In this document: one piece after another, positions 3,585 through 45,551 of the stretch
Layout: each line of letters begins with the position of its first letter
Position numbering within the stretch: position 1 is the stretch's first letter
NCBI GenBank assembly: GCA_902799555.1
Contig: CADCBB010000002.1
Coordinates: forward strand, 1-45,551
Origin: an uncultured Bacteroidales bacterium
GTDB lineage: Bacteria; Bacteroidota; Bacteroidia; Bacteroidales; Paludibacteraceae
Length of the DNA stretch: 45,551 nt
Direction: 5' to 3'
Position numbers and translations under genes: made by a program
The notes under the pieces: model-generated
Databases searched by the model: none
What the model saw: the letters and a program-made list of their open reading frames with translations, nothing else
Told to the model about the DNA's origin: nothing

Positions 3585-3688
3585 GGCTTTAGCATATGCT
3601 ACTCAACAAAAAACGAACTGCCCCGTTCTCGTGTTCCGCGTTCCCCAAACGCTCCACAACGTTTTTGTTTGAGTACATATAGCTAGCC
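3585..3688 (+). repeat. Long imperfect hairpin between potA and potB
   Basis: Arms 3585-3615 and 3660-3688 are near-complementary over about 29 nt (shared GGCT, TATG, TACTCAA and CAAAAA blocks). The loop carries a GC-rich 7-nt-period tract at about 3621-3650 (GTTCTCG, TGTTCCG, CGTTCCC). It fills most of the 129-nt gap and has no T-run. A role in setting the potA:potBCD mRNA ratio is an inference. Confidence 0.6.
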
Positions 3689-3712
3689 GAACGTTAAAAG
3701 AATAAAGAATAA

Positions 3713-4504
3713 ATGAATAAGATAGTACAGATATTTTCTTCGCGAAGGACGTGGGCGTGGCCGTATGTGGCGTTCATGGCGATGTTTGTAGTATTGCCGC
3801 TGATCTTGGTCGGCGTGTATGCATTCACGGACATCGAGGGACACTTTACGCTGCATAACTTCGCGAAGTTCTTCACGCATAGCGAGGCGATACAGACTTT
3901 TTTGTACTCGCTGATGATTGCGGTGTTTAATACGGCGATCTGTCTGCTGATCGGTTATCCGGCGGCGTATATCATGGCGCAGGAAGATTTCAAGACGCCG
4001 AAAGTGATGGCGATGTTGTTTATTCTGCCGATGTGGATCAATTTCCTGTTAAGAACGGTAGCCACAGTGGAGTTGTTCAATATGTGCGGTTTGCCGTTAG
4101 GCGAAGGAGCGTTGCTTTTTGGTCTGTGTTACGACTACTTGCCGTTTATGATTTACCCGATCTATAATACGCTGCAGAAGATGGATAACAGCCTTGTGGA
4201 AGCGGCGCAGGATTTGGGCGCGAGCCGTTGGCAGAGTTTCTGGAAAGTGATCGTGCCGCTGAGTATGCCGGGCGTGTATAGCGGTATTGTGATGGTGTTT
4301 ATGCCGACGGTTTCGACGTTTGCGATTGCGGAGTTACTGACACATAATAATATCAAGTTGTTCGGTAGCCTCATTCAGGACTATATCACGACGACCGACC
4401 TGCTCAATTATGGTGCGGTACTGTCGCTGGTACTGTTGATTATTATCGGTCTTACGTCGTTCTTCGGCGACCATGACAGCAAAGAGGAAGGAGGGCTGGT
4501 ATGA
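3713..4504 (+). CDS. potB: Polyamine ABC transporter permease, PotB-like
   Basis: A 263-residue inner-membrane permease with about six hydrophobic segments. The EAA loop that docks on the ATPase is clear at about 163-187 (EAAQDLGAS, ending PLSMPG). Length and order match PotB/PotH proteins. The C-terminus is a short charged tail. The stop overlaps the start of the next gene in ATGA, so translation is probably coupled. It pairs with the following PotC-like permease to form the membrane channel. Confidence 0.93.
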   Translation: MNKIVQIFSSRRTWAWPYVAFMAMFVVLPLILVGVYAFTDIEGHFTLHNFAKFFTHSEAIQTFLYSLMIAVFNTAICLLIGYPAAYIMAQEDFKTPKVMAMLFILPMWINFLLRTVATVELFNMCGLPLGEGALLFGLCYDYLPFMIYPIYNTLQKMDNSLVEAAQDLGASRWQSFWKVIVPLSMPGVYSGIVMVFMPTVSTFAIAELLTHNNIKLFGSLIQDYITTTDLLNYGAVLSLVLLIIIGLTSFFGDHDSKEEGGLV

Positions 4505-5856
4505 GACAATTTAAACTAGTCGTCCTAGGTATCCTAGGAATCCTAGGTGTCCTAGGTAGTCCTCTAAGCGCGCAGTCGAATGTGACGTATGAGTTGAAGG
4601 TAGGGACGACGGGAGAGAATACGTTGCTGGCTGAGTTTCCGGAATCCTACGCCGGCGAAAAGATCAATATTAATGTACAATGTACAATGTACAATGAACA
4701 AACGGCAGACTCTTTCGATTTCATCTTCTCGTCCATGAATCAGCCAAATTTGGTTGATAGATTCGATTCTATCTATAGTTATACGGATGAGGCGGAGGTG
4801 GCATGGACCGTTTGGCAGAGTAAGAAAGAGATCAAGAACCGCAACCGGCGTGTGATGGCGCAGAACGCGTATAAGACGTTTGACGGATATGTGCGCATGC
4901 ATACTGCGGAGGCTCAACGGAGTCGGGGATGGATCTGGTGGTTGTTTGCCGGCTTGTTGCTGGTAGGTACTGCGCTATATGGCGGATGGATTTTCTATGA
5001 GCGCCGCAAGGAGAAGAATCTTACGGCTGTGGAGCAAGAGACGCTGAGGCGCAAAAGGATGGGTCTGCGTAGGCACTATGGTTCGCAACTCTACCTGTGG
5101 TTGTTGCTTATCATTCTCTATGCGCCGATTGCTTTGATTGCGGTGTTCTCGTTCACGAAGAGTAAGATCTTGGGTAACTGGACGGGTTTCTCGATGGATC
5201 TGTATGTGAATTTATTTACGGGTAAAGCAGATGCGGGTCTGAATAGTGCGATCTGGTACACGGTCGTTATTGCATTGGTTGCAGCCGTTGTTTCGACAAT
5301 CTTGGGTACGCTTGCTGCGATCGGTATTTATAACATGCGGGCAAGAAGCCGTAAGGCGGTGAGTCTGCTGAACTCGGTGCCGATGATTAACCCGGATATC
5401 ATCACGGGTATCTCGTTGTTCTTGCTGTTTGTGGCGTTGGGAATGAGTCAGGGTTTGGCGACCGTTTGTATCGCGCATGTGGTATTCTGTACGCCGTATG
5501 TGGTACTGAGTGTGTTACCGCGATTAAGCCGAATGAACCCGAATACGTATGAGGCGGCTTTGGATCTGGGTGCCACGCCGGCGCAGGCTTTGCGCATGGT
5601 GATGCTGCCGGAGTTATGGCCGGGTATGCTGAGCGGATTCATCTTGGCGCTGACCTTGTCGGTAGATGATTTCGGCGTGACATTCTTCACTAAAGGAAGC
5701 GGCGGTTTGGAGACCCTGAGTACGTTCATCTATTCGGATGCGCGAAAGGGCGGTTTGACGCCGGAGTTACGACCGTTATTCACGATCATATTACTCGTGA
5801 TGCTTATTGCTTTGATTGTAATCAATATTCGTAATACTAAACAAGAAGAAAAATGA
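4501..5856 (+). CDS. potC: PotC-like permease with an extra secreted domain
   Basis: The protein has 451 residues against about 260 for normal PotC. Residues about 196-451 are a standard permease with an EAA loop at about 351-376 (EAALDLGAT, ending LWPG). Residues 1-25 form a classical signal peptide ending SAQ, 26-141 a hydrophilic domain, 142-165 a transmembrane helix, and 166-195 a very basic linker. This topology is consistent: signal peptide, periplasmic domain, helix back to the cytoplasm, then PotC helix 1. The added domain was not recognised; it may sense substrate or contact PotD. The signal peptide is written in a 9-nt repeat and the domain contains a 7-nt repeat. It overlaps potB and potD by ATGA. 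Confidence 0.9.
   Translation: MRQFKLVVLGILGILGVLGSPLSAQSNVTYELKVGTTGENTLLAEFPESYAGEKININVQCTMYNEQTADSFDFIFSSMNQPNLVDRFDSIYSYTDEAEVAWTVWQSKKEIKNRNRRVMAQNAYKTFDGYVRMHTAEAQRSRGWIWWLFAGLLLVGTALYGGWIFYERRKEKNLTAVEQETLRRKRMGLRRHYGSQLYLWLLLIILYAPIALIAVFSFTKSKILGNWTGFSMDLYVNLFTGKADAGLNSAIWYTVVIALVAAVVSTILGTLAAIGIYNMRARSRKAVSLLNSVPMINPDIITGISLFLLFVALGMSQGLATVCIAHVVFCTPYVVLSVLPRLSRMNPNTYEAALDLGATPAQALRMVMLPELWPGMLSGFILALTLSVDDFGVTFFTKGSGGLETLSTFIYSDARKGGLTPELRPLFTIILLVMLIALIVINIRNTKQEEK
4516..4561 (+). repeat. CTAG nonamer array x5 in potC signal peptide
   Basis: CTAG starts at 4516, 4525, 4534, 4543 and 4552, exactly 9 nt apart and in codon phase. It encodes the repeated Leu-Gly-x core of the signal peptide. 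The same five-copy design recurs at 7112 and 10047. Confidence 0.95.
4672..4699 (+). repeat. Heptamer array AATGTAC x3 plus AATGAAC
   Basis: Four head-to-tail 7-mers lie inside the extra domain of potC. The array keeps the reading frame open and encodes a short Cys/Met/Asn-containing stretch. Confidence 0.95.
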
Positions 5857-10045: not shown

Positions 10046-11891
10046 ACTAGGCGGCCTAGTAGTCCTAGGATTCCTAGGATCCCTAGCGAATAACGCTTTC
10101 GCGCAGAGCGACAGCGCGCTGAATAGATCGGTGACCGTAGAGCGGGATTTTCAGCCTATCATACAGGCAGCAGGAAAAGTGTCCACTAAACCGGCTGTGG
10201 TAGAGACGAACATCGAGCCGACGCCTATCGAGTATTCCCACTATACGGCATCCGTACAACCGACGGCGACCTTTAATCCCTTGTTGTCTCAACCGACACG
10301 TTTTGAGCCTACCGCCCCCTATAAGGGTTACGTCCGCGGTGCAGTCGGTCACCCGAATACGCTCTTTGGTTTCGGCTACCATCTCGATGACGGCAAGAAC
10401 TCGATCCTCGATGTGCATGCAGGGCATCATGCCGAGTGGGGAACGGCGACCTTGAGTAAGAGTAAATTGGGCTTGAATTTCAAGCATACGTTCTCGACAT
10501 GCGACCTCTATTTTGGTGTAGAAGGAGGAAACATCTACTACAACAAGTACGGTCATTGGTACGACTACACGACTTTCTACACAACGAATCGTGATTTCGG
10601 CGGATGGGAGAAGAACGAAGTAGCCTATGCCAAGAAGGTTCCGGCCATAGATCGTGACCTCACCTCGCTTTGGACGGCAGAGGCGTTTGTAGGTGTGCGT
10701 TCGAACCCCAAACAGGATATCCAATATAAGGTGCAGACGGGTTACATGCTGTTCTCCAAACCCGGCGCGGTGAGTGAGCATCAGATTCGTACACACGGTT
10801 CGGTCGACTGGAGCAGCGAAGCGCATCATGTAGGTGCCAATATCTACGTGCAGAATAACTTCCGTCAGTTGCGCAATGCCTTGGCAGAAGCGATACCGGA
10901 TTCGTTATACCATAACATCCATAATTTCCGCATTGAACCCTATTATGTATATGAAGGAAAACGCGTGCGCGTACACGTAGGCGTGAACCTGGACCTGAAT
11001 CTGGGTCGCGGACAGAATGAGTTATCCGGCGTAGAGAATCTGTCGTTTGCTCCTTCGCCCCATATCAATCTGGAGGCGCAGATCGCCAAACAATGGTTGA
11101 CGATCTATGCGGATATCGAGGGCAGTCACGGTTTCGGTACTTTGCAGGACTATATGGAGGAGAACCGTTATCGTTTGATTCATCAGGGCATCATCGAGCC
11201 GCATGCGGCTTCTTATACTCCGGTAGATGCGGAGTTAGGTTTGCATATCCGACCGTACCGTGACCTGCTCTTTGAGATTCACGGAGGGTATGCGTATATG
11301 ATTCATGAAGATGTATGGGTAGCGAATGCGGACTCTGCATCGGTGGCTATAGGCGGGGTGAATAAGAAGATGGTAGGCGCAGGTGACTTCACCTATTTCC
11401 ATACTAATTACCAGCGTGGGAAAGTAGGTGGTCAGATCAACTACCATTTACGTGACATCTTGCGTATCAACGTCAACGGAGATTATTATTTCTGGAGCGG
11501 TGACACGACGGTGTATGACCGACCGAACTGGGAATTAGCCGTTCGTATTGACGGGCGTATTGACAAACACTGGTCCGTCTATTCGGATAATAAGTTCGTC
11601 GGTGGCCGCAAGGCACTGGTGTATAACGGCGCTACGGACACGTATACGGAGCATATGCTTCGTCCTATCTTGGATTGCAACCTGGGCGTGGAATATAATA
11701 TGTGGGTAGGTAGTAAAGGTGAAAGGTTAAAGGTGAAAGGTGAAAAGGATCAGATTCTTCGTCCTGAACCCAAACCGAACCTCACGCTCTTCCTGCAACT
11801 CAACAACTGGTTGCATCATAAGAACGAATTATTCTACGGATATCGCTCGCAGGGCATCAATTTCCTGCTCGGAGCGACCTATCGGTTCTAA
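10029..11891 (+). CDS. Outer-membrane beta-barrel protein
   Basis: The protein has 620 residues. The signal peptide ends AFAQ and its core again uses the CTAG repeat. A short periplasmic segment contains VERDFQPII, a pattern I associate with Bacteroidetes barrel proteins paired with TPR proteins. The rest is rich in alternating aromatic/hydrophobic strands and ends in YRF, as outer-membrane barrels do. There is no TonB plug domain of normal size, so porin-like or anchoring roles are both possible. Near the C-terminus a four-copy heptamer array inserts a Lys/Gly/Glu stretch, probably in a loop. It is the last gene coupled to potABCD and the TPR gene. Confidence 0.78.
   Translation: MKKRIKLGGLVVLGFLGSLANNAFAQSDSALNRSVTVERDFQPIIQAAGKVSTKPAVVETNIEPTPIEYSHYTASVQPTATFNPLLSQPTRFEPTAPYKGYVRGAVGHPNTLFGFGYHLDDGKNSILDVHAGHHAEWGTATLSKSKLGLNFKHTFSTCDLYFGVEGGNIYYNKYGHWYDYTTFYTTNRDFGGWEKNEVAYAKKVPAIDRDLTSLWTAEAFVGVRSNPKQDIQYKVQTGYMLFSKPGAVSEHQIRTHGSVDWSSEAHHVGANIYVQNNFRQLRNALAEAIPDSLYHNIHNFRIEPYYVYEGKRVRVHVGVNLDLNLGRGQNELSGVENLSFAPSPHINLEAQIAKQWLTIYADIEGSHGFGTLQDYMEENRYRLIHQGIIEPHAASYTPVDAELGLHIRPYRDLLFEIHGGYAYMIHEDVWVANADSASVAIGGVNKKMVGAGDFTYFHTNYQRGKVGGQINYHLRDILRINVNGDYYFWSGDTTVYDRPNWELAVRIDGRIDKHWSVYSDNKFVGGRKALVYNGATDTYTEHMLRPILDCNLGVEYNMWVGSKGERLKVKGEKDQILRPEPKPNLTLFLQLNNWLHHKNELFYGYRSQGINFLLGATYRF
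10047..10086 (+). repeat. CTAG nonamer array x5 in barrel signal peptide
   Basis: CTAG starts at 10047, 10056, 10065, 10074 and 10083, in frame and 18 nt after the start codon, matching the two other arrays. Confidence 0.95.
11718..11745 (+). repeat. Heptamer array GGTGAAA x4 in the barrel gene
   Basis: GGTGAAA, GGTTAAA, GGTGAAA, GGTGAAA run head to tail and stay in frame. They encode a KGE/KVKGE stretch between predicted strands. Confidence 0.95.
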
Positions 11892-12278: not shown

Positions 12279-14336
12279 ATGGCAGAGAACAAGAAGCGGC
12301 GAGGACCGCAACAGATGAACAATAATGGTCAGCAACCCGGGAAGGGAAGACGATGGTTGAGTCTGCTCTTTTATACCCTGGCTTTTGCGCTTTTAGGTTT
12401 TTATCTCTTTGGTGACAAGGATAATAACGGCGTCACGAAAGAACTGAGTTACACCAAGCTAACCGCTTATATCGAAGTGGGCGCGATCGATAAGATCGAG
12501 GTGACGGACGACCTGCAAGCCAAAGCGACCGTGAAGCCGCAGAACTACACCCTGGTTTTCGGAACGCAGGGGGACGGTGAGCGTGCCAAAGGGCAATTAC
12601 GGACGCAGGTTCCTTCGATCGAAGAGTTCTCCAAGTACATGGACGGCGTCAATGCGACACGTAAGGCGAACGGGCAAGCGGCGATCGATGTGACGTACGC
12701 CAAGTCACGTGACTACTGGTACTTGATTTTGGTCAATATCCTGCCGTTTGCGTTGCTGATCCTGTTCTTCGTGTATATGAGTCGCGGAATCGGTAGCGCA
12801 GGAGGACCGGGCGGTATCTTCGGTGTCGGTAAAGCGCAGGCGCAGTTGTTCGATTCGAACAAAAAGGACAAAGTGACCTTCGAAGATGTAGCAGGTCTGT
12901 ACGGTGCCAAACAGGAGGTACAGGAGATCGTGGAGTTTTTGAAGAACCCCAAGAAATACACCGAGATCGGTGCGAAAATTCCGAAAGGCGCACTCTTGGT
13001 AGGCCCTCCGGGAACGGGTAAGACCTTGCTCGCCAAAGCCGTTGCAGGCGAAGCGAACGTACCTTTCTTCTCGATGTCGGGTAGCGATTTCGTGGAGATG
13101 TTTGTGGGCGTAGGAGCCAGCCGTGTGCGGGATCTCTTCCGTCAGGCGAAAGAGAAAGCGCCGGCGATCATCTTCATTGATGAGATCGATGCGATCGGTC
13201 GAAGCCGCAGTAAGGGTGTGATGACCGGTGGTAATGACGAACGGGAGAGTACGCTGAACCAACTCCTGACGGAGATGGACGGTTTCGGTACCAACTCCGG
13301 TGTCATCATCTTGGCGGCTACTAACCGTGCCGACGTACTCGACGCGGCCTTGTTGCGCGCCGGTCGTTTTGACCGTCAGATTCATGTCGAGTTACCGGAC
13401 CTGCAGGAGCGTAAGGAGATCTTCCAAGTGCATCTGCGTCCGCTGAAACTGGACGAGACGGTGGATATTGATTTCTTGAGCAAACAAACCCCCGGATTCT
13501 CGGGTGCTGATATCGCGAACGTATGTAACGAGGCAGCGTTGATTGCAGCCCGCGGCGGACGTAAGAAGATATGCAAACAGGATTTCATGGATGCGGTGGA
13601 TCGTATCGTAGGTGGTCTGGAGCGCAAGAATAAGATTATGACCGAAGAAGAGAAGAAATCGATTGCGTACCACGAGGCGGGTCATGCAACCATCAGTTGG
13701 ATGCTCCGCTGGGCGAACCCGCTGGTCAAAGTGACGATCGTTCCGCGCGGCATGGCGCTGGGCGCAGCATGGTACTTACCCGAAGAGCGTCAGTTGACGA
13801 ACGAGGAGCATATCTTGGATGAGCTCTGTTCGCTGTTAGGCGGTCGTGCTGCCGAGCAGTTGTTCCTTAATCAGACCTCAACCGGCGCACTCAACGACCT
13901 GGAGCGTGCCACCAAGCAAGCCTATGCCATGGTTGCATACTACGGTATGAGCGATAAACTGAAGGATATCAGCTTCTATGACTCCACGGGTCGGTACGAC
14001 TACGGATTGATTAAACCCTATTCGGAAGACACCGCAAAGACCATTGACGACGAGACCCAACGGATCATCGCCGAGCAGATGGCGCGTGCAAAACAGATCC
14101 TGACGGACAATGCCGAAGGACATCACCAGATTGCGCAACTGCTTATCGAGCGCGAGGTGATCACCTCCGAAGATGTAGAGCGTATCCTCGGTCCACGTCC
14201 ATGGAAGAGTCGTGGCGATGAACTGCTGGAAGTCAATGCCGCACTCGCTGAATCCGAGAAACCGAAGAAACGCGTTAGTCGAAAGAAAAAAGTCGAAAGT
14301 CAAAAGAATGAAGATAATGAAGAAACTACTGCTTAA
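12279..14336 (+). CDS. ftsH: ATP-dependent zinc metalloprotease FtsH
   Basis: A 685-residue membrane-anchored AAA+ protease that degrades damaged membrane proteins and regulators. The order is a basic N-terminus, helix 1 (about 26-44), a periplasmic domain, helix 2 (about 146-167), the AAA module with Walker A GPPGTGKT (about 243), Walker B IIFIDE and the second region of homology, then the M41 protease with HEAGH (about 464-468). The ATG at 12279 is preferred over one 45 nt upstream that lies inside rsfS. The C-terminal tail is Lys-rich and encoded by a heptamer array that also contains the start of the next gene. Confidence 0.97.
14278..14312 (+). repeat. Heptamer array GTCGAAA at the ftsH/M16 junction
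   Basis: GTCGAAA, GAAAAAA, GTCGAAA, GTCAAAA and GAATGAA follow head to tail. The last unit holds the ATG at 14308, a possible start of the M16 gene, while ftsH is still being read in another frame. Confidence 0.8.
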
Positions 14337-18138: not shown

Positions 18139-19219
18139 TAATCTCGGCCGCAGTGACCGAAGCGGGTTGAGAACCCAAGAGTTGAACGAGGTGCTCGTAC
18201 GATGCGAGCATCTCTTTTTTATAGTCTTCATCACGCAGCAGACGATTCAGTTCGGCGGCTACGTTCTCGGTCGTGAACGCATCTGCAATGCATTCTTTGA
18301 TCACCTCCTTGCCGGCGATGATATTGACCAAAGTAAAATAAGGGATGGAGAAAAAGAGCGGTTGTGCCCAACGAATCAAACCGATCAACTTGGAGCCGGC
18401 CAGATGATAAACCGCTACTTGCGGACAACCCAATAAGGCGGTCTCTAAGGTTGCCGTTCCGGAGTTGACCACGGCGGCAGAGGCTTGCTGAACCGCATCA
18501 TATGTATCACGTGTCAGCCTTTCATTGGCGCGAAGATACGGAGCGTAGAAGGCATCTTCGATGTTCGGCGCCGCACACACTACGATCTCATAATCCGCAA
18601 ACTGCCGTGCAGCTTCCAACATACGCGGCAGACAGTTCGTGATTTCAGAAGGTCTGCTGCCCGGTAAGATAGCTAGGATATTAGAATCCCTATACCTTCT
18701 AGGTACTCTGGCGATTTCCTCCGCCGTCGGATTTCCCACATAGCGGCAGGTATAGCCATACTTCGCATAAAACGCCGGCTCAAAGGGGAAGATACCGAGT
18801 ACCTCATCGCATAGACGCGTGATCTGATGCACGCGCCTGCGTTTCCAAGCCCATATTTTCGGCGGAATATAATAGATGATCTTCGTCTGAGGCAAGTACT
18901 GCTTGCAAAAAGCTGCCATGCGCAGGTTAAACGAAGGGTAGTCGATCAAAACCAGCACGTCCGGTTGCTCCTTCAACAGCGCCTCACGGGCAATTTCGAA
19001 ATTAGCTTGTACTTCCTTCCAATGACGCATTACGGTAACAAAACCCATAAAGGCCATATGGCGGATATGCCGGTACAACCGACACCCGGAGGCTTCCATG
19101 CGGTCGCCTCCGAGGCCTGCTATCTGTGCCTTCGGGTCACGCAACCGGATCTGCTTGATTAGTTCTGCTGCGTGCGTATCGCCCGATGCCTCACCTGCTA
19201 TGAAGAAATAATTTTTAAT
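18122..19219 (-). CDS. lpxB: Lipid-A-disaccharide synthase, apparent ATT start
   Basis: LpxB joins UDP-2,3-diacylglucosamine and lipid X to make the lipid A disaccharide at the inner membrane. The conserved N-terminus (IAGEASGDTHA) is encoded upstream of the first in-frame ATG (19144), so that ATG cannot be the true start. Reading back, the frame is closed by a TAA that is also the stop codon of glmM (19238-19236). Between it and the IAGE motif there is no ATG, GTG or TTG. ATT at 19219-19217 gives (M)KNYFFIAGEASGD, matching the usual MKY-IAGE start, and a 365-residue protein. Other features: YYIPPKIWAWK, the PGSRPSEI donor-site block, NSGTATLE. A degenerate CTAG-rich patch lies at 18668-18708. 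Confidence 0.9.
   Translation of the reverse strand: MKNYFFIAGEASGDTHAAELIKQIRLRDPKAQIAGLGGDRMEASGCRLYRHIRHMAFMGFVTVMRHWKEVQANFEIAREALLKEQPDVLVLIDYPSFNLRMAAFCKQYLPQTKIIYYIPPKIWAWKRRRVHQITRLCDEVLGIFPFEPAFYAKYGYTCRYVGNPTAEEIARVPRRYRDSNILAILPGSRPSEITNCLPRMLEAARQFADYEIVVCAAPNIEDAFYAPYLRANERLTRDTYDAVQQASAAVVNSGTATLETALLGCPQVAVYHLAGSKLIGLIRWAQPLFFSIPYFTLVNIIAGKEVIKECIADAFTTENVAAELNRLLRDEDYKKEMLASYEHLVQLLGSQPASVTAAEIITSKQ
18668..18708 (-). repeat. Degenerate CTAG-containing patch in lpxB
   Basis: Two CTAG sites (18673, 18699) flank loose 7-9-nt periodic sequence in the codons before PGSRPSE. It is weaker than the other arrays and may be a decayed copy. Confidence 0.4.
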
Positions 19220-19246
19220 TCTTAATTTTTAATTTTTAATTCTTCA
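19212..19246 (-). repeat. Heptamer array AATTAAA at the glmM/lpxB junction
   Basis: On the plus strand TTTTTAA, TTCTTAA, TTTTTAA, TTTTTAA and TTCTTCA follow head to tail. The array contains the glmM stop codon (19236-19238) and the only plausible lpxB start (ATT, 19217-19219). Confidence 0.95.
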
Positions 19247-21183: not shown

Positions 21184-21711
21184 TTATCTCAATTCGATGT
21201 CTATAATCACATTCTCATACGGCGGAATACGATCTGTTCCGCGTAAGCCGAAGGCAGTGTACCAGGGAGCCAACAGACGTGCTTGTGCGCCGTGATGCAT
21301 CTCGCCGATATTCTCTTCCACCGCTTGCGGTAACTCTTTCTTGCCGATGCGGTAACTCGCTTCGCTATCTTCCAACAGCTGCATCTTCAGGTCGTACACA
21401 CGCATGCGGATCGTCCATTCTTCATTGGCTTGCGGAGTCGGGGTCGTCTCGTCACCCTTGCTCATGATCCGCATCCAGGTGCCGGCTTCGTATAAGGCGA
21501 ACGCACTATCCTGCTCCTGAGCCAACGCCGTCAACTCTCTGTCTGCTGCCTCCGCCAACTGTTGGTTGAGTTGCAGCAAAGCCAAAGCCGCACTGTCCAC
21601 TTGCGGCTCCTGCCCTTTGCGTTGACTCGGCGTCTGAGGCGCTTGATGTCCGCAACCTACGAACATCATTGCCATCAACACAAAAACGACTATGCTTCTT
21701 TCAACTTTCAA
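21184..21711 (-). CDS. FKBP-like lipoprotein, TTG start in a repeat
   Basis: A 175-residue lipoprotein (lipobox MFVGC, Cys20) whose C-terminal 100 residues resemble an FKBP-type peptidyl-prolyl isomerase: a GEMHHGAQARLLAP flap, TAFGLRG, and the terminal PPYENVIIDIEL strand. Active-site aromatic residues are not all conserved, so activity is uncertain. No in-frame ATG lies before the signal peptide core; TTG at 21711-21709 is the best start and lies within a heptamer array. The same array holds the stop of the upstream kinase. The encoded N-terminus MKVER is also the start of the MBL protein at 35338. Confidence 0.82.
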   Translation of the reverse strand: MKVERSIVVFVLMAMMFVGCGHQAPQTPSQRKGQEPQVDSAALALLQLNQQLAEAADRELTALAQEQDSAFALYEAGTWMRIMSKGDETTPTPQANEEWTIRMRVYDLKMQLLEDSEASYRIGKKELPQAVEENIGEMHHGAQARLLAPWYTAFGLRGTDRIPPYENVIIDIELR

Positions 21712-21733
21712 CTTTAAACTTTCAACTTTCGCC
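21699..21733 (-). repeat. Heptamer array GTTGAAA at the kinase/FKBP junction
   Basis: On the plus strand TTTCAAC, TTTCAAC, TTTAAAC, TTTCAAC and TTTCGCC. The unit at 21720-21726 contains the kinase TGA stop, and the unit at 21706-21712 contains the TTG start of the FKBP-like gene. Confidence 0.95.
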
Positions 21734-24700
21734 TTTATTCGCCAACGCAGCCCTGCGGTATTCGCTTGGCGTCACGCCATACGTGTTCTTGAAGCATTTT
21801 GCGAAATAACGGCTGTCGTTCATACCCACCATATAGGTCACTTCCGTGATGTTATATCGCTGCTCTTCCAGCAGTTGTGCCGCACGCTTGATACGCATCT
21901 CGCGGATGAACTCCACCGGACTCAGACCCGTCAGGCTCTTCAATTTATTGAAGAATACCGTACGACCCATACCCATCTCGTCCACCATCTCATCGACCGT
22001 CAGCGTGTTATTGTCCATCTGCCGCTCCATCACATCCAGCAACTTTGCCAGGAACGAGTCGCTTGGGATAGGCTCATCGGCTTTCTGCGGCTCCAGACGC
22101 ATCAGACGTTCGCGGTAACTTTGCTCCAACTGATTGCGTTGTACTAATATATTATGGATACGCGCGCGCAGGTATTCGGGTTCGAAAGGCTTGGTCACAT
22201 AGTCATCCGCGCCGTCTTCCATCGCCTGCAAACGACTCTCGATAGCTGTCTTGGCGGTCAGCAGAATCACCGGAATGAAGTCGTAGTCTTTATTGCGCTT
22301 GATGAACTGGGTCAACTCCAACCCGTCCACATTCGGCATCATCAGGTCGGTCACTACCAGATCTACCGCCTTCGTCCGGATGATCTCTTCCGCTTCTGCG
22401 CCGTCGCTTGCCGTCAGCACATGGTAGTCGTGACTGAGGATGTTGGTCAGGAAATTACGCATATCGACGCTGTCATCAACCACGAGGATCGTGCGAGCCG
22501 AGTCTTGTGCATCGCCTTCCAACTGCTCCATCTTGTCTTCGAAGGTGGGAGCAACGGTCGGAGGTGCTACCGTCTCTTCATCGGCGAGAAACTCCACATC
22601 ATCCCCGAAATGTTCCTTACCGGTATGCAGCAGGATGGTGATGGTCGTACCCTTGCCCACTTCGCTCTCCACATCGATATAACCGTGGTGCAGGTCCACC
22701 AACTCTTTGGTGAGGTTCATACCGATACCCGTACCTGTTATTCCGGTGTTGTTCAACTCGTTGTTGCTGGAGAAGCGCTCAAACAGCACACTGCGTTTCT
22801 CGGGCGCGATGCCGATACCTTCATCTTGCACGGCTAGCGTCACAAAGCCCGGTTTGGAGTCAATAATCACGCGGATCGCTTTGCCGGCCGGCGTGAACTT
22901 AAACGCATTGCTCAGTAAGTTCCACAAGATCGTATCCATTCGCTGCCGATCCACCCAAACGGTGGAGTCTTCGGCGCGGTTCTCTATCTCAAACTGAATA
23001 TGTTTCTCGTACGCCTCTTTCTTGAAGTTCGCGCTGGTCTCTTCCACAAGGCTGCTGAGCATCGTCTGTTGCAGTTTGAGTTTCATCTTCTGGTTCTGCA
23101 CCTTACGGAACTCCAGCAGTTGGTTCACCATGCGCAACATACGTTGGCCGTTGCTCTGCACGATCTCCAATTGGCTGCGGACGCTCTGACTGATGCGCTC
23201 GTTCTGCAAGATGTTGTCGATCGGCGCTACAATGAGCGTCAGCGGCGTACGTAACTCATGACTGATATTGGTGAAGAATCGCAACTTGATATCCGTCACC
23301 TGTTGCTCCACTTTCACGCGTTGCCGCAGGTTGTTATAGGTTGCGATCGTGTAAATCGTCAAGCCGATGAAGAGGATGATAGCTAATACGTACAGCATGA
23401 TTGCCCACCAGCTGAGCCATATCGGCGTCTCCACCTCGATCACCATCGTCTTTTCATTATCGACCTCGCCACCCTCGCGGTTCGTCGAACGCACATGGAA
23501 GACGTACGTCCCGTGAAGCAGGTTGTTATAGGTCACGCGGCGGATATCTTTCGCATACTGCCATCCGTGGTCGATGCCGTCCATCCGGTAGAAATAGAGT
23601 ATCTTGTCCGCACCCACATAGTCCATCGCCGCATATTCGATCGTGATATTACTACCGTTCGGGATGGTGATCGTGTCGCCCGATAAGGTTTGGTCCTGCA
23701 CCGCCACACGCGTGATACGCAAGGGGGGTATCGAGTTGGTACGACGTATACGACTCGGGTCAAACGAACAGTAACCGTTAGAGTAGCCGAATAGAATGTG
23801 TCCTTCCGGCGTACGCAGCGCCTCTGCCTCCGTGAAGTACGTATTCTCTTCGCCGTCCAGCGCGTCGTAATAATATAGTTCACCCGTCACCAGATTCAAT
23901 TGCGCGATATCGCTCTCTGAACTGAACCATAGACTTGTTCCGTCGCCTACCATCGATAGGATGATATCGTGGTAGGTCTCCACGCGTGTGATCTCCACGT
24001 TCGGATCTTTGGGATTCAATGTCATCAATCCGCCGCCGAACGAACCTAACCACAGTTTATCCAGACTGTAGTGGATAGCGCGGATGTCATAGCATGGGAT
24101 CACCGTGCTCTCTAAGGTGCTCAGGTTCACGCGCATCACACCCGTCGTCGTGCCGCACCAGAGCGTCTCATCTACGATCTCGATATCGCGCACTTTCATC
24201 CCTTGGCCTACTACCTCCGGTGCATCCCATCCTGCACCGTTCCAACGGATGATGTTCACACCGCCTCCGTAGGTAGCCACGTATAACGTGCCGTCACGAC
24301 CTTCCTCTATATCATAAATATCCGGATGGGAAGTAGGTATCCTTTCGCCTTTAATCTTTAACCCTTCACCCTTAATCAGACCATTTCCTTTCGTGCCATA
24401 CAGCATACCGTGACGGGTTTCCAGCGCACTATACACGTTCGTCTCCGATTTGATCAGCGTCAGTACCTCCCCTTTCTTCGTGCGAGCGAAAGCACGTACC
24501 TCGCCGTTATCGCGATCTGAATGACGCAGGTCATGCAGTTGGTATGGCGTCGGCTCCATGTTGATGCAATCCACACCGCCGTCGTATGTCGCTACCCACA
24601 TCAATCCGTCCCGATCTACATACGCCGTGTGAATCATGTTCGTCAACCCGTCGATCGGATACACCAACTCATCTTTGTCGTAGTCATAGTAACTCCAACC

Positions 24701-26187: not shown

Positions 26188-26220
26188 ATGCTGTATGCTG
26201 TTAATTTTTCAATCTGCCCG

Positions 26221-26252: not shown

Positions 26253-26541
26253 TAAATGTGTAATTTTTTACTTTAATGTGTATTTTTTAGTTAAAGAATC
26301 CTTTTTCATGGGGAACCATAATAAAAAAGAGCCTCTCACTGGAATGATTAACTCGACTTTCATGAATTACACATTTAACATTACACATTAAACATCTTTT
26401 AGCACTAGCGAACGTTCGCATCTCGTTCGCATTACGGACATCTACGGTGGGTGCTTTTTCCGGTCTTGGAGGTTATAGGAGGAATACCCTAAGTAGAGTA
26501 AGTCTAATATATGTAATAATATTAGACCTACTTAGTGGTTC
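26253..26541. other. Intergenic region with repeats, no gene
   Basis: The gap holds a four-copy heptamer array (26366-26393), a GCGAACGTTCGC palindrome with a nearby second GTTCGCAT (about 26406-26431), and the left part of a large inverted repeat (26471-26549). A 67-codon frame at 26188-26391 starts inside the rfbA leader and has no family resemblance. Confidence 0.6.
26366..26393. repeat. Heptamer array ATTACAC/ATTAAAC x4
   Basis: ATTACAC, ATTTAAC, ATTACAC and ATTAAAC follow head to tail in intergenic DNA. Confidence 0.95.
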
Positions 26542-34717: not shown

Positions 34718-35338
34718 TTATCTTCTTTCTTCTCCAATAGTTGTTTCCGCGCCATGCCCCGGATAGACCAAGGTATCGGCAGGGAGTGTAAATAAATGCT
34801 CTAAGGATTCAATCAGTTGTCCCATATTTCCTCCGGGCAAGTCGGTACGACCATACCCCATCTGAAAGAGCGTATCACCGGAAAGTAACACTTTTTCTTC
34901 CGGCCAATAGAGGCATATCGAACCGGGAGTATGACCGGGTGTTTCGAGCAATTCAAAATTGCTCATTTGAGATTTAAGATTTAAGATTGAAGATTTTATA
35001 TCTTCGATCGGAAAAGCCTCTGCGGTTCGGTGGATACCGAAGAGGTCGTATTGTTGCTGCATGGCTTGCGCCATCGGGATATCCGCCTCATGCATCAAGA
35101 CCGGTGTATGCCATTGTTCGGTTGCCCATTTGGCGCCCCATAGATGATCCAGATGTCCATGGGTCGCTATAATTGAAAATTGAAAATTGAAAATTGAAAG
35201 TTTTTCTATATAGCGCAGCAATACCTGCTCCTCGTACGGGTTGCTGCACGCGGGATCCACAAGCAGAACCTGCTGCTCGTCCGACACGACATAGCAATTC
35301 GTCTGAAACGGACCAAATATAAACCTTTCAACTTTCAT
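34718..35338 (-). CDS. MBL-fold hydrolase (glyoxalase II-like)
   Basis: A 206-residue metallo-beta-lactamase-fold protein of the small glyoxalase II-like group. Metal ligands are in THGHLDH (His60, His62, Asp64, His65), with TPGHTPGS, LSGDTLF and a C-terminal PGHG. The substrate is unknown. Two in-frame heptamer arrays interrupt it: one writes KLSIFNFQFSI directly before the THGHLDH motif, the other an ILNLKSQMSNFE stretch before TPGHTPG. The ATG start is inside a third array at the junction with the radical SAM gene. Confidence 0.9.
   Translation of the reverse strand: MKVERFIFGPFQTNCYVVSDEQQVLLVDPACSNPYEEQVLLRYIEKLSIFNFQFSIIATHGHLDHLWGAKWATEQWHTPVLMHEADIPMAQAMQQQYDLFGIHRTAEAFPIEDIKSSILNLKSQMSNFELLETPGHTPGSICLYWPEEKVLLSGDTLFQMGYGRTDLPGGNMGQLIESLEHLFTLPADTLVYPGHGAETTIGEERR
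34946..34994 (-). repeat. Hairpin plus heptamer array in the MBL gene
   Basis: GAGCAATT/AATTGCTC forms a perfect 8-bp hairpin (34946-34964). TTGAGAT, TTAAGAT, TTAAGAT and TGAAGAT follow at 34967-34994, all in coding sequence. Confidence 0.93.
35172..35199 (-). repeat. Heptamer array ATTGAAA x4 in the MBL gene
   Basis: Four perfect copies of ATTGAAA in frame, encoding the Phe/Ser-rich stretch just before the metal-binding motif. Confidence 0.97.
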
Positions 35339-35352
35339 CTTTCACTTTTCAA
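35325..35352 (-). repeat. Heptamer array at the radical SAM/MBL junction
   Basis: Plus strand CTTTCAA, CTTTCAT, CTTTCAC, TTTTCAA. It fills the 14-nt gap, abuts the radical SAM stop (35355-35353) and contains the MBL ATG (35338-35336). Confidence 0.95.
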
Positions 35353-36345
35353 CTATTTATAGCATTCTTGACAGATTTGTGGTTGTTCGTTCAGTGCCGC
35401 TTTTCGGAATGCGGTCGCTTTCTCATTGCCAAACAAGTCCTTCAGCGATGACTCCATAATATTACCGTACGCATGCGCGTGCGTTTTGTCATAGCAACAG
35501 GGCAGCACTTCGCCTTTCGTAGTAATCACCGCTCCGCTCCATACGCGGAAACAGCCTTTGTGAAGAGGACGGCGGTGATAGACACCATCCTTGCCGAGCA
35601 CATACCGGCTATATCGCTTATCGGATGGCATCAGCGGGTGACCATGCGTATAGTCGTACAGTTGTGCGGTCTTGAAGACCAAGCGATCGGCGCCTAAGGT
35701 CTTATATTGACGTTTAAACTGCGCCCATTCGTGCTCATTGGTCTTTAGCCGCAAGCATTGCAGTTCGATGATGGGAGATGACGACAGTTCATTTTTCGCT
35801 TTGCGAAGGAAACGTAAAGCCTGTTTGGTTTTTTCGAGGCTTCCGCCGATGCGGTAGGCGTTGTAGGTTTCATCGGAGAGGCCGTCCATGGAGACGATGA
35901 TACGGTCCAGACCTGCTTCCACTAAGTCCTCCGCCATCTGTTCGGTCATCGCCTGCGCATTGGTGCTGACGATGGTATACAGCCCTGCCTCATGCGCCTC
36001 TTTTATCATCTGCGGCAGGTCCTTATTTAGTAGCGGTTCTCCCTGGAAATAGAACTGCACGATAAGAGCGGTATCACGTATCTCAGCGAGAATACGATGC
36101 CATGTATCAAGGGACATCGTCCTTTCGAGATCTTGAGATTTTGAGGTCTCGACATGTCGAAGCCCAACAGGGCAAGCGGGGCAGCGCAATTGACAAACGG
36201 CTGCCGGCTCCACACTGACGAATAAAGGCGAAAGGTGAAAGGTGAAAGGTGAAAGGAAACGCGCTGAACCGAGACGATTCAGCGCATAACTCACATAGCA
36301 ACGAAGCGCGTTACTTACACGGGATCTTGTTAACACGACGCTCAT
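35353..36345 (-). CDS. Radical SAM / SPASM-like protein
   Basis: A 330-residue radical SAM enzyme. The 4Fe-4S cluster motif is CQLRCPAC (Cys51, Cys55, Cys58), then GEPLLNKD, an SMDGLSDETY strand and C-terminal cysteines (GCFRVWSG, LPCCYD, CQECYK) that suggest a SPASM-type auxiliary cluster. The substrate is unknown; such Bacteroidetes proteins are often annotated only as radical SAM. Two periodic arrays flank the cluster motif: one writes FLSPFTFHLSP just before it, the other ETSKSQDLE just after it. The start overlaps rpiB by 35 nt. Confidence 0.88.
   Translation of the reverse strand: MSVVLTRSRVSNALRCYVSYALNRLGSARFLSPFTFHLSPLFVSVEPAAVCQLRCPACPVGLRHVETSKSQDLERTMSLDTWHRILAEIRDTALIVQFYFQGEPLLNKDLPQMIKEAHEAGLYTIVSTNAQAMTEQMAEDLVEAGLDRIIVSMDGLSDETYNAYRIGGSLEKTKQALRFLRKAKNELSSSPIIELQCLRLKTNEHEWAQFKRQYKTLGADRLVFKTAQLYDYTHGHPLMPSDKRYSRYVLGKDGVYHRRPLHKGCFRVWSGAVITTKGEVLPCCYDKTHAHAYGNIMESSLKDLFGNEKATAFRKAALNEQPQICQECYK
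36124..36161 (-). repeat. Periodic tract after the radical SAM cysteines
   Basis: Loose 7-nt units (TTGAGAT, TTTGAGG, TCTCGAC, ATGTCGA) encode residues just beyond the CxxxCxxC motif. Weaker than the other arrays. Confidence 0.55.
36224..36251 (-). repeat. Heptamer array AAAGGTG x3 plus AAAGGCG
   Basis: AAAGGCG followed by three AAAGGTG copies in the radical SAM gene, encoding the segment just before the cluster-binding strand. Confidence 0.96.
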
Positions 36346-43323: not shown

Positions 43324-44075
43324 TGAATAAATTGCTAATTGCTATGTCTGTTATGACAGCTATCATTATTGCTCACCGCGGTGGAGCGCTTTTAGGAACA
43401 GAAAACAGTCTTTCATGCATTGAAAAAGGTATCCGGACGGGTGCCAATATGGTAGAGGTAGACCTTCATCTGACCGCCGATAAGCGTATCGTCGTATGCC
43501 ACGACCAGAGCGTGAACCGTACTACCAACGGAAAAGGAAAGATCGAAGAGATGACCCTCGAAGAGATTCAGCGTTTGCGGATATTGAATCACGACGGTAC
43601 GGTGTCCAATGAGAGCATTCCTACTTTGGAGCAGGTACTTGCCTTATGCAAAGGGCGTTGTCCGCTGCTTTTGGAGATCAAAAAGAAACGCGATGACCAA
43701 TATTCCGGTATCGAGGCGCTGGCAGACAGCATCGTCAAGTCCTATCAGATGGAGAAAGAGGTCGTTTTTCAGTCCTTCAACGATGATGTGCTCTTTAAAC
43801 TGCATGCGATCGACCCGACCTTACGCTTGGAAAAACTACTGATTGCGCGTATGGGAAGTGTCCTTTTCGACAACGGTTTCTCAAAGTTCAGTTGGGAGAA
43901 ATACGATTTCGTGGCATCGTTTAATATCTTCCGCTGTTTTGCCACAGATCGTTTTATCGACGATATGCATGCGCATGGTAAGGAAGTCAAAGTGTGGACC
44001 GTCGATGATCCTGCCAAAGCACCGACTAAGGCCGATGGCATCATCTCCGACCGCCCGGATTTGTTCATTCATTGA
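43323..44075 (+). CDS. Glycerophosphodiester phosphodiesterase
   Basis: A 250-residue GDPD-family enzyme that would release glycerol-3-phosphate from deacylated phospholipids. Catalytic residues are visible: AHRGG (His18, Arg19), EVDLHLT (Glu45, Asp47) and VVCHD (His60), with LLEIKKK and KVWTVDD further on. The short hydrophobic N-terminus leads straight into the first strand, so it is probably cytoplasmic. TAATG coupling to the HEPN-NACHT gene suggests co-translation. Two ATTGCTA heptamers lie in its first codons. Whether it serves lipid metabolism or the putative defence locus is open. Confidence 0.93.
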   Translation: MNKLLIAMSVMTAIIIAHRGGALLGTENSLSCIEKGIRTGANMVEVDLHLTADKRIVVCHDQSVNRTTNGKGKIEEMTLEEIQRLRILNHDGTVSNESIPTLEQVLALCKGRCPLLLEIKKKRDDQYSGIEALADSIVKSYQMEKEVVFQSFNDDVLFKLHAIDPTLRLEKLLIARMGSVLFDNGFSKFSWEKYDFVASFNIFRCFATDRFIDDMHAHGKEVKVWTVDDPAKAPTKADGIISDRPDLFIH

Positions 44076-44122
44076 CGTTTTTCTGTATTTTTTAACAAAA
44101 AATGCATTTTTTCGTCCTAAAA

Positions 44123-44154
44123 TTTGGTAGTTTCGTAAAAAAGCAGTAATTTTG
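44123..44154 (+). promoter_or_regulatory. Promoter of rpsO
   Basis: TTTG (44123-44126), 20 nt, TAATTTTG (44147-44154). About 90 nt of leader follow, including a 7-bp hairpin near 44158-44179 that could take part in S15 autoregulation. Confidence 0.85.
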
Positions 44155-44250
44155 CAGGCTTTTTCGCGTGAAAAGGCACATTAATGCCACGAAGTTGGGA
44201 TGATAGATTCGGCTTTAGTGGTGATTGTATAACTAAAAAACAAATCAGAA

Positions 44251-44520
44251 ATGTATTTAACAGCTGAGAAAAAAGCAGAGTTGTTCGCAAAGTACGGCAA
44301 CGACGCTAAGAACACCGGTTCTGCTGAGAGCCAAATCGCATTGTTCACCTTCCGTATCAACCACCTGACCGAGCACCTGAAGGCTAACCGTAAGGACTTC
44401 GGTACAGAGCGCGCCCTGACCGCATTGGTAGGTAAGCGTCGCCGCATGTTGGATTACCTGAAGGCAAAAGACATCGAGCGTTACCGCGCAATCATCAAAG
44501 AACTCGGTATTCGTAAGTAA
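44251..44520 (+). CDS. rpsO: 30S ribosomal protein S15
   Basis: An 89-residue S15 protein, which binds 16S rRNA early in 30S assembly. Signature segments are TGSAESQIALFT, INHLTEHLK and the RRRMLDYLK block; length is exactly normal. Monocistronic, with its own promoter; a hairpin (44521-44535) lies directly after the stop and an intrinsic terminator at 44571-44609. Confidence 0.98.
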   Translation: MYLTAEKKAELFAKYGNDAKNTGSAESQIALFTFRINHLTEHLKANRKDFGTERALTALVGKRRRMLDYLKAKDIERYRAIIKELGIRK

Positions 44521-44570
44521 GTCGAGCGGCTCGACACCCAATTGGGCCATTCGGTTACGGAAAAAATCAA

Positions 44571-44609
44571 AAAAGTGGCATACACTCTTGTGTATGTCAT
44601 TTTTTTTTT
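44571..44609 (+). terminator. rpsO terminator overlapping the hflX promoter
   Basis: A stem of about 11 bp (core GCATACAC/GTGTATGT) with a TCTT loop and a nine-T run. The loop and descending arm contain the -33 box of the next promoter. Confidence 0.9.
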
Positions 44610-44618
44610 GTAACTTTG
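44587..44618 (+). promoter_or_regulatory. Promoter of hflX
   Basis: CTTG (44587-44590), 20 nt, TAACTTTG (44611-44618), only about 12 nt before the ATG at 44630, so the mRNA is nearly leaderless. Confidence 0.8.
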
Positions 44619-44629
44619 CGCCAAAATTT

Positions 44630-45551
44630 ATGATAGAGATAAAACCATATATTGAGCATGCCGTTTTGGTTGGATTGATTACACCCAACCAACCGGAAGA
44701 TCGCACCAAGGAGTACTTGGATGAGTTGGCGTTTCTTGCTGATACACACGGCATCGTGCCGGTGAAGCGGTTCACGCAACGGCTCGATCAGCCGAATACG
44801 GCGACATACGTAGGCGAAGGTAAACTTGAAGAGATTGACCAATATATCCAAGGAAGGTTACAGGTGACGGGTGACGGGTTACCGGAACCGGTCGATGTGG
44901 TCATCTTTGATGACGAACTCAGTCCGCGGCAGATACGTAATATTGAGAAAGCGTTGAATCACAAAGGTCAGCCGGATGTGCGGGTTATTGACCGAACGAT
45001 ATTGATTCTGGAGATCTTTTTGCAGCGTGCGCAGACGAGTTACGCCAAGACGCAGGTGGAGATGGCGCATTTGCAGTACATGCTTCCGCGCCTGACACGT
45101 ATGTGGTCGCACTTGGATCGTCAACGAGGCGGTGGTGGCACCAACCGCGGTATGGGTGAGACGCAGATAGAAGCCGATAAGCGTGTCATCGGTCAGCGTA
45201 TCGCGTTGCTGCGGGAACAACTCAAAACGATCGATAAACAGATGGCGACTCAACGCCAGCATCGCGGAAAGATGGTTCGTGTAGCCCTCGTAGGCTATAC
45301 CAACGTAGGCAAATCGACGCTGATGAACCTGCTCTCCAAATCCGATGTGTTCGCGGAGAACAAACTCTTTGCAACCTTGGACACCACCGTCCGCAAGGTG
45401 ACGATTGAGAACCTGCCGTTCTTGCTTTCTGATACGGTAGGGTTCATCCGTAAGTTGCCTCATCATCTGGTAGAGTCCTTCAAATCGACGCTGGACGAGG
45501 TGCGCGAAGCCGACCTGCTGGTACACGTAGTGGATATCAGCCATCCGAATT
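44630..45551 (+). CDS. hflX: GTPase HflX (3' end missing)
   Basis: Partial gene, 307 codons to the right edge. HflX is a ribosome-splitting GTPase of the stress response. Family features are the N-terminal domain (TYVGEGKLEEI, VIFDDELSPRQIRNIEK, VIDRTILILEIF), the GGGGTNRGMGETQIE loop, and the G domain with P-loop VALVGYTNVGKST, TLDTTVRK switch I, and LSDTVGFIRKLPHHLV (G3). The window ends after VVDISHPN. A heptamer array at 44856-44883 adds a Gly/Asp/Thr stretch in the N-terminal domain where related proteins have only a short loop. Confidence 0.95.
   Translation, partial: MIEIKPYIEHAVLVGLITPNQPEDRTKEYLDELAFLADTHGIVPVKRFTQRLDQPNTATYVGEGKLEEIDQYIQGRLQVTGDGLPEPVDVVIFDDELSPRQIRNIEKALNHKGQPDVRVIDRTILILEIFLQRAQTSYAKTQVEMAHLQYMLPRLTRMWSHLDRQRGGGGTNRGMGETQIEADKRVIGQRIALLREQLKTIDKQMATQRQHRGKMVRVALVGYTNVGKSTLMNLLSKSDVFAENKLFATLDTTVRKVTIENLPFLLSDTVGFIRKLPHHLVESFKSTLDEVREADLLVHVVDISHPN
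44856..44883 (+). repeat. Heptamer array GGTGACG in hflX
   Basis: GGTTACA, GGTGACG, GGTGACG and GGTTACC in frame, encoding a QVTGDGLP stretch between IQGR and the VDVVIFDD strand. Confidence 0.95.

What the first reader, a model, noticed from the sequence alone, without database searches (positions are those of the whole stretch)
3621..44883. A dispersed family of 7-nt-period microarrays
At least sixteen places carry three to five head-to-tail 7-mers whose unit sequence differs from site to site but whose period is fixed: potA-potB loop, 4672, 11718, 14278, 19212, 21699, 24341, 26366, 33814, 34967, 35172, 35325, 36124, 36224, 44856, plus two-copy cases before rfbA (26188) and in the GDPD start. 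Many units fit a loose (R)(N)TGAAA pattern. They are in intergenic DNA and in frame inside genes. A fixed period with a free sequence suggests a generating mechanism (replication slippage with a 7-nt step, or a template-copying enzyme) instead of selection for one binding site. I know of no named family that this fits.
Basis: partly seen in the sequence, partly recalled or inferred. Interest (0 to 1): 0.78.

Follow-up and report, generated by a model that had tools for sequence, protein, structure and literature searches.

The report
Dispersed heptad-repeat inserts in Bacteroidales
This uncultured Bacteroidales genome and its relatives are peppered with short inserts of about 33 bases, built from up to about five copies of a 7-base word, that appear, disappear and change their word between sister species at gene junctions and inside protein loops; they resemble heptanucleotide repeats known from other bacteria, but with an unexplained ceiling at five copies.

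Summary
The lag-7 signal is real: 118 arrays in 844 kb of this genome (Markov controls 0 and 2), 53 in called genes (codon-shuffled 0).

Two claims fail. The period is not fixed: 8, 9 and 11 are enriched too, while 10, 12 and 13 are near zero. The sequence is not free: units coincide in 290 pairs (16 expected, AT-matched), and favourites are genome-specific (AAAGGTG here, AAAAATT in sister genome G061).

New points: period-7 arrays stop at five cores (59 with five, 4 with six) with almost no excess of two-core seeds, so simple slippage is not the main generator. Among 44 orthologous sites in the two sisters, 20 are empty in one, 9 the same, and 15 hold a different array at the same place. In G061 arrays fill 14 of 19 tandem gene gaps of 30-39 nt (4 of 17 here); others sit in proteins, one in RNase P RNA.

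This works like cyanobacterial STRR and other heptanucleotide repeats: a new variant of a known kind. Best reading: discrete ~33-nt inserts copied between loci, tolerated at permissive spots, slippage secondary. The enzyme is unknown.

The parts
3697..3713 (.). weak period-7 array AAAGAAT (2.4 copies) running up to the potB-like start codon
4672..4701 (.). period-7 array AATGTAC, 4.3 copies, in frame in the potC-like gene; sister genome G061 has a GTATTCA-type array at the same place
11715..11745 (.). period-7 array AAAGGTG, in frame near the end of ORF 10029-11891; no array at this place in G061
14277..14306 (.). degenerate AGTCAAA array near the 3' end of ftsH; near chance by lag-7 score (8)
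19209..19241 (.). period-7 array TAATTTT (33 nt) at the 3' end of gene 19236-20609(-), before the next gene on that strand; identical in G061, where this unit is the favourite
21698..21730 (.). period-7 array CTTTCAA (33 nt) in a gene junction; G061 carries extra CTTTAAA variant units
24349..24373 (.). weak period-7 array (CTTTAAT/CCTTCAC), genic; a different array lies at this place in G061
26366..26395 (.). weak period-7 / period-14 array (ACATTTA/ACATTAA), intergenic upstream of the rfbA-like gene
34965..34995 (.). period-7 array ATTTAAG in loop B of the MBL-fold hydrolase gene 34718-35338(-); same in G061, other units in some other congeners
35171..35199 (.). period-7 array AATTGAA (4 copies) in loop A of the same gene; one base differs in G061, other units in some other congeners
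35325..35351 (.). weak period-7 array CTTTCAA/CTTTCAT across the start of the same gene; absent in the sister
36224..36256 (.). period-7 array AAAGGTG (33 nt, five cores) in frame in the radical-SAM gene; absent in the 20 other orthologues read
44855..44885 (.). period-7 array GGTGACG/GGTTACA (five GG at 7-nt steps, by eye) in frame in a loop of the HflX-like GTPase; absent in the sister, whose protein is 9 codons shorter
36123..36145 (.). weak period-8 (not 7) array; the sister reads TCGAGATCTCGAGATC here
26187..26201 (.). two-copy TATGCTG before rfbA; near chance level
43330..43344 (.). two-copy AATTGCT at the GDPD start; near chance level

Best explanation
The arrays are short dispersed inserts, up to about 31-34 nt long, of three to five copies of a 3-6 nt core spaced every 7 nt, with a ceiling at five. 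They are gained as discrete pieces and survive where they are tolerated: between cotranscribed genes, in protein loops, and once in a variable region of RNase P RNA. Shown: the ceiling, presence/absence between sisters, the location bias, and genome-specific favourite units. Inferred: new arrays are copied from other arrays in the same genome, and an existing array can be overwritten by another, perhaps through short homology during template switching or gap repair. Whole-unit slippage then adjusts copy number locally. They look nearly neutral or selfish rather than selected for a sequence. No enzyme is identified.
For: Size (period 7): excess over Markov expectation by number of cores is 2:+4, 3:+48, 4:+69, 5:+59, 6:+4 here; 2:-6, 3:+23, 4:+37, 5:+53, 6:+6 in G061; 2:+2, 3:+39, 4:+30, 5:+30, 6:+6 in a genus sample. 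Lengths of 30-34 nt: 62 of 150 and 54 of 106 arrays of score 10 or more. Exactly five units in 22 of 27 AAAAATT arrays of G061 and 12 of 17 AAAGGTG arrays here (counted).

Gain and loss: of 44 deduplicated orthologous period-7 sites 20 EMPTY, 9 SAME, 13 SWAP and 2 swapped to period 9; 8 of the 17 EMPTY rows labelled intergenic differ by 32-40 nt. Radical SAM: array in 1 of 21 orthologues read.

Units: AAAAATT 27 of 94 arrays in G061 against 2 of 118 here, Fisher P 4e-9; AAAGGTG 17 of 118 against 3 of 94, P 0.008. Coincident unit pairs 290 against 6.9 expected, 16.1 AT-matched. Shared four-unit variant strings: 11 pairs against 1.9 shuffled in G061 and 5 against 0.5 here, each reached by 1 of 500 shuffles. 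No shared flanks seen.

Same site, different unit: with at most 80 nt unaligned on either side, 6 of 10 genic arrays here and 5 of 10 in G061 face a period-7 array of a different unit in the sister, intergenic 5 of 14 and 5 of 21; array-free control segments 3 of 778 genic and 0 of 35 intergenic. The two directions share sites.

Location: in G061 14 of 19 tandem gaps of 30-39 nt hold an array, here 4 of 17. RNase P RNA of G061 holds a five-CAAT array.
Against: No enzyme, target-site duplication or constant end was found. Periods 8 and 11 do show two-core excess here (+18 and +15), and period 11 declines without a step; period 8 stops after five here (18, then 1) but after four in G061 (7, then 3) and in the genus sample (17, then 4), so the five-core ceiling is firm for period 7 only. 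The shared variant strings weaken when unit position is kept: 7 and 12 of 500 shuffles reach the observed value. Looser alignment limits raise the control to 26 of 834 genic and 3 of 49 intergenic; an earlier loose run gave 22 of 388 and 19 of 177 for any period-7 array. Some pairs show plain whole-unit slippage (L067:13227; window 21698). Arrays of three and four cores are as common as five here; I read many as decayed or partly detected five-core arrays, without proof. The core count is a length-based proxy. A few longer arrays exist (2 here, 3 in G061 with seven or more cores).
Confidence: 0.55

Rival explanations
1. Local replication slippage with a preferred 7-nt step, as proposed for heptanucleotide repeats in general (Mrazek et al. 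2007, read only as reported in MacGregor 2015), with an expansion/contraction balance that holds arrays near five copies.
For: Whole-unit copy differences between sisters (L067:13227, two units; window 21698); a balance of growth and shrinkage can give a preferred length in theory; heptanucleotides are the commonest class in most genomes of that survey (passage); periods 8 and 11 show a two-core excess here.
Against: No two-core excess and a drop after five cores at period 7; favourite units differ between sisters about 93% identical; different units at the same site, no closer to each other than random pairs (mean distance 2.8 against 3.1, P 0.13).
Confidence: 0.2
2. Functional modules: unstructured, stop-rich linkers between cotranscribed genes that end the upstream gene in every frame and give an open leader for the next start codon, selected for length and openness rather than sequence.
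For: Many intercistronic arrays abut stop and start codons; of 48 tandem sites here 24 have stops in all three frames on the sense strand and in none on the other, 7 the other way round; 14 of 19 gaps of 30-39 nt are arrays in G061; arrays fold weakly, -0.03 against -0.13 kcal/mol per nt for random 32-mers.
Against: 53 of 118 and 34 of 94 arrays lie inside called genes, where the open strand tends to be the sense strand (17 against 0), so orientation follows from what is tolerated; only 4 of 17 such gaps are arrays here; fast gain and loss; G028 had 0 period-7 arrays in 100 kb. The folding comparison was not matched for base composition.
Confidence: 0.15
3. An array-writing enzyme, such as a reverse transcriptase with a short template or a telomerase-like antiviral RT (the latter recalled), that lays down about five copies of a 7-nt template.
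For: Length ceiling at period 7, several preferred periods, a favourite unit per genome.
Against: PF00078 in only 7 of 23 congeners and in 2 of 8 of good completeness; 15 of the 16 without a hit have period-7 arrays in my samples, though many are incomplete; variants inside arrays argue against copying from one template.
Confidence: 0.1

Closest known systems
STRR, short tandemly repeated repetitive heptanucleotides of heterocystous cyanobacteria (Mazel 1990 and Vioque 1997: content recalled; only a citing sentence on Calothrix and the Vioque title seen)
   Same: 7-nt units, several unit types per genome, dispersed. Recalled: present in rnpB, with unrelated units in closely related strains, as here in G061 rnpB and at the swapped sites.
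   Different: Other phylum; here a ceiling at five copies, many insertions in coding sequence, and companion arrays of period 8, 9 and 11.
TAACTGA direct repeats (MacGregor 2015, PMC4679880; passages and the Bacteroidetes section read)
   Same: [quoted passage not shown] related genomes with no repeats at the same gene pair are reported there too.
   Different: One fixed unit there, with arrays of up to 43 copies in some genomes; here 47 unit classes in 118 arrays, 1 of them the TAACTGA rotation, and 53 of 118 arrays genic.
GGGAATC / GGGGATT heptamers of Xanthomonas and Nostoc (PMC4692102; passages read)
   Same: Heptameric, kept between the same genes in related species while length and sequence vary.
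   Different: G-rich with G-quadruplex potential, a few related units, 2-26 copies; here mostly A+T-rich, weakly folding, ending at about five cores.
Rickettsia palindromic elements inserted in frame in protein genes (recalled; search listing only)
   Same: Short dispersed repeats tolerated in frame in proteins.
   Different: Palindromic and longer (recalled); arrays here are direct repeats that fold weakly.

Membership tests
Heptanucleotide simple sequence repeats / STRR-like | tandem units of 7 nt in clear excess over chance | tested here: met
   118 arrays against 0 and 2 in controls
Heptanucleotide simple sequence repeats / STRR-like | dispersed at many unrelated loci with several unit types in one genome | tested here: met
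   47 unit classes, unrelated flanks for the 53 arrays of three classes viewed
Heptanucleotide simple sequence repeats / STRR-like | mainly intergenic | tested here: inconclusive
   65 of 118 outside called genes, 53 inside; above the 13% non-coding share, but not exclusive
Heptanucleotide simple sequence repeats / STRR-like | related strains carry unrelated units at one site, rnpB included (recalled from Vioque 1997) | tested here: met
   15 of 44 sites swapped between sisters; array inside rnpB in 1 of 20 rnpB genes read, swap in rnpB itself not seen
Slippage contingency repeats | copy number declines smoothly from short to long, with short seeds abundant | tested here: not met
   period 7: no two-core excess, drop after five cores; periods 8 and 11 come closer to a smooth decline
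TAACTGA repeats | one conserved heptamer | tested here: not met
   1 of 118 arrays
REP elements with RAYT (Y1) transposase | palindromic hairpin | tested here: not met
   mean folding energy -0.03 kcal/mol per nt over 118 arrays, both strands
REP elements with RAYT (Y1) transposase | Y1_Tnp gene in the genome | tested here: inconclusive
   10 of 23 genomes, 8 above cut-off; this genome 21.4 bits, below it
CRISPR array | repeats separated by unique spacers of similar length | tested here: not met
   head-to-tail units with 1-4 nt between cores, no spacers

The most novel reading that the evidence does not exclude
An undescribed array-writing process in this Bacteroidales genus lays down pieces of about 33 nt with up to five cores, in a small set of periods (7, 8, 11), and can overwrite an existing array in place with the genome's current favourite unit. 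The unit would be supplied by a template that changes between species, so that sister genomes rewrite the same sites in different words.
Probability: 0.15. Interest if true: 0.9.

Novelty: new variant of a known kind. Interest (0 to 1): 0.6.

Why it matters
Why heptanucleotides are so common in bacteria is an open question, for which polymerase slippage has been proposed. Here sister genomes about 93% identical give many filled, empty and swapped sites, a ceiling at five copies, and genome-specific units. That makes slippage, copying between loci, and selection on linker function directly testable. It also shows a source of in-frame inserts in conserved proteins (HflX, radical SAM, MBL hydrolase) and in RNase P RNA.

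Tried and rejected
Chance and codon bias: rejected by Markov, codon-shuffle and synonymous-shuffle controls. A first pattern search used an 8-nt spacing by mistake and found period-8 TGAAAGAR arrays instead. Constant flanks or a larger carrier element: none seen by eye around 27 AAAAATT, 17 AAAGGTG and 9 AAAGTTG arrays. Reverse transcriptase (PF00078, 7 of 23) and Y1 transposase (PF01797, 10 of 23) as required enzymes: not supported, though many genomes are incomplete. The AATTGAA unit as an order-wide signature: 7 of 119 genomes including this one, while the reversed control pattern hits 7 others, so no excess outside this genome for that unit. A first gene caller found only 69% coding and was replaced; the second still misses parts of some genes, so the window sites 36224 and 44855 are labelled intergenic although they lie in the radical-SAM and HflX genes, and L096:6628 although it lies in menA. 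Swapped units as point mutants of each other: not supported. A plasmid protein search for the MBL gene gave only matches under 60% identity. Order sample: 6 of its 20 genomes were picked because they hold the AATTGAA unit, and 10 of its 12 period-7 arrays are in those six. MBL alignment: 6 of 35 rows were skipped by a motif filter. Sister sites: 22 of 71 rows dropped as duplicates. A control with unequal limits for arrays and control segments was replaced by one with equal limits.
Full report
WHAT IS THERE. The window lies in an uncultured Bacteroidales genome (2.34 Mb in 82 contigs, 86% complete). The nearest named relative found is a metagenome-assembled Bacteroidales record, L028, in genome G061, about 93% identical in DNA. 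Lag-7 runs are far above chance in the window. In 844,142 bases (the window plus 40 stretches) there are 118 period-7 arrays, against 0 in one Markov-4 control and 2 in another. Inside called genes 53 arrays fall to 0 when codons are shuffled and to 2-3 when only synonymous codons are shuffled.

THE PERIOD IS NOT FIXED. In the same sample there are 35 arrays of period 8, 18 of period 9 and 17 of period 11, but only 2 of period 10, 2 of period 12 and 1 of period 13. One stretch from each of 20 congeners (358 kb, one stretch masked) gives 43, 12, 5, 2, 18, 2 and 0 arrays for periods 7 to 13. Species differ: 100 kb of G011 has 2 arrays of period 7, 10 of period 8 and 8 of period 11; 100 kb of G028 has 0, 0 and 3. 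The other periods have their own cores, such as ACGTCATG and TCGAGATC (8), CCTAGG (9), AGTAGGT and AGTACT (11) (by eye).

THE SEQUENCE IS NOT FREE. The 118 arrays fall into 47 unit classes with 290 coincident pairs, where 6.9 (16.1 matched for A+T) are expected; 54 of 118 contain TGAAA or its complement. The favourite differs between sisters: AAAGGTG 17 of 118 here and 3 of 94 in G061; AAAAATT 2 of 118 here and 27 of 94 in G061 (Fisher P 0.008 and 4e-9). Arrays of one unit at unrelated places share the order of variant units more often than shuffled (G061 11 pairs against 1.9; here 5 against 0.5; 1 of 500 shuffles each), though less strikingly when unit position is kept (7 and 12 of 500). I saw nothing shared in their flanks. 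This argues for copying between loci (inference).

A CEILING AT FIVE CORES. Counting cores by length, the period-7 excess over Markov expectation here is +4, +48, +69, +59, +4 for 2 to 6 cores, and -6, +23, +37, +53, +6 in G061; the genus sample gives +2, +39, +30, +30, +6. In G061 22 of the 27 AAAAATT arrays, and here 12 of 17 AAAGGTG arrays, split into exactly five units (counted). Slippage from short seeds should leave many two-copy arrays and a smooth decline; neither is seen at period 7. Periods 8 and 11 are less clear: two-core arrays are in excess here (+18 and +15); period 8 falls from 18 with five to 1 with six here, but from 7 with four to 3 with five in G061 and from 17 to 4 in the genus sample; period 11 has no step.

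SISTER COMPARISON. With both 200-nt flanks matched, 44 deduplicated period-7 sites between this genome and G061 give 20 EMPTY, 9 SAME, 13 SWAP and 2 swapped to period 9; by my gene calls the genic ones are 7 SWAP, 4 SAME and 3 EMPTY, but at least three EMPTY sites labelled intergenic (36224, 44855, and L096:6628 in menA) are really in genes. Five period-8 sites give 4 SAME and 1 EMPTY. Swapped pairs can have equal length, for example 37/37, 36/36 and 52/52 nt between aligned flanks. With at most 80 nt unaligned on either side, 6 of 10 and 5 of 10 genic arrays (from this genome and from G061) face a period-7 array of a different unit, 3 and 3 the same unit, 1 and 2 none; intergenic arrays 5 of 14 and 5 of 21 different, 5 and 4 same, 4 and 12 none; array-free control segments 3 of 778 genic and 0 of 35 intergenic. 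With limits of 400 nt the control rises to 26 of 834 and 3 of 49. The two directions count some sites twice. An earlier loose control gave 22 of 388 genic and 19 of 177 intergenic, so the intergenic excess is less firm than the genic one. Swapped units are no closer than random pairs.

SINGLE GENES. In the MBL-fold gene, two loops carry arrays in 8 and 6 of 29 aligned homologues, with about seven and five different units (counted by eye). In the radical-SAM gene 20 of 21 orthologues read have no array and this genome alone has one, so it was gained here. In HflX the loop has an array only in this genome among 23; in three others (G054, G058, G002) it holds a palindrome-like insert, so the same loop accepts several kinds of short insert. 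G061 has a five-CAAT array inside a variable region of RNase P RNA; the 19 other rnpB genes read have none inside, and in this genome rnpB was not found.

WHERE THEY SIT. With my own simple gene caller (87% coding), 53 arrays are genic, 48 lie between tandem genes, 9 between convergent and 8 between divergent genes; in G061 34, 51, 3 and 0, with 6 at ends of stretches. In tandem gaps here 24 arrays have stops in all frames on the sense strand and in none on the other, 7 the other way round; inside genes it is 0 and 17. In G061 14 of 19 tandem gaps of 30-39 nt hold an array, here 4 of 17; overlapping gene pairs do not (0 of 48 and 0 of 110). Arrays fold weakly, in a comparison not matched for composition. 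This fits tolerance: an insert that stops translation survives at a gene end, an open one survives inside a gene.

MECHANISM. Best supported: discrete inserts of about 33 nt, copied within a genome, surviving at permissive places, with local unit-by-unit slippage as a second process. Shown: the ceiling at period 7, gain and loss, location, genome-specific units, different units at one site. Inferred: copying between arrays and overwriting in place. Unknown: the enzyme. PF00078 (7 of 23) and PF01797 (10 of 23) are not required on present evidence.

WHAT IS KNOWN. MacGregor 2015 (PMC4679880, passages and the Bacteroidetes section) describes TAACTGA heptamers near start codons in Beggiatoaceae, cyanobacteria and five Bacteroidetes, and reports the proposal of Mrazek et al. 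2007 that 7 nt fits the polymerase contact and favours slippage. PMC4692102 (passages) describes heptamers in Xanthomonas and Nostoc and cites three heptanucleotides in Calothrix. That unrelated STRRs sit in rnpB of closely related cyanobacteria is recalled from Vioque 1997; I saw only its title in reference lists, and the paper is not held. In four searches of the held library I saw, by title and opening of abstract, no paper on such arrays in this genus, on a five-core ceiling, or on unit swaps between sister Bacteroidales; most subscription papers are not in that library.

Noticed in passing
window 4523-4563, 7112-7151, 10047-10086: Three ORFs of one gene cluster begin with signal-peptide-like sequences whose hydrophobic part (LGILGILG and the like) is coded by 9-nt CCTAGGNNT repeats.
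   Followed up: partly
window 4501-5856: The potC-like permease ORF has an N-terminal signal-peptide-like stretch and an added part before the permease part; the 4672 array lies in that added part.
   Followed up: no
L204:1552-1584: A five-core heptad array inside the RNase P RNA of the sister genome G061.
   Followed up: yes
L206, L218, L221 (HflX loop): The HflX loop of three congeners holds palindrome-like inserts (CTCCCCTCAAGGGAGGGAG or a variant) where this genome has a heptad array.
   Followed up: partly
L020:15845-15897, L026:11920-11952, L027:14219-14278: Period-8 TCTTTCAY arrays; the five period-8 sites compared between the sisters were the same in 4, against 9 of 44 for period 7.
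   Followed up: partly
L009:2296-2360, L013:8790-8852, L017:9833-9884: A period-11 family (AGTAGGTGATT) with nearly the same long array at three places.
   Followed up: no
window 26255-26294: A 19-20 nt tandem repeat (AATGTGTAATTTTTTACGTT) upstream of the rfbA-like gene.
   Followed up: no
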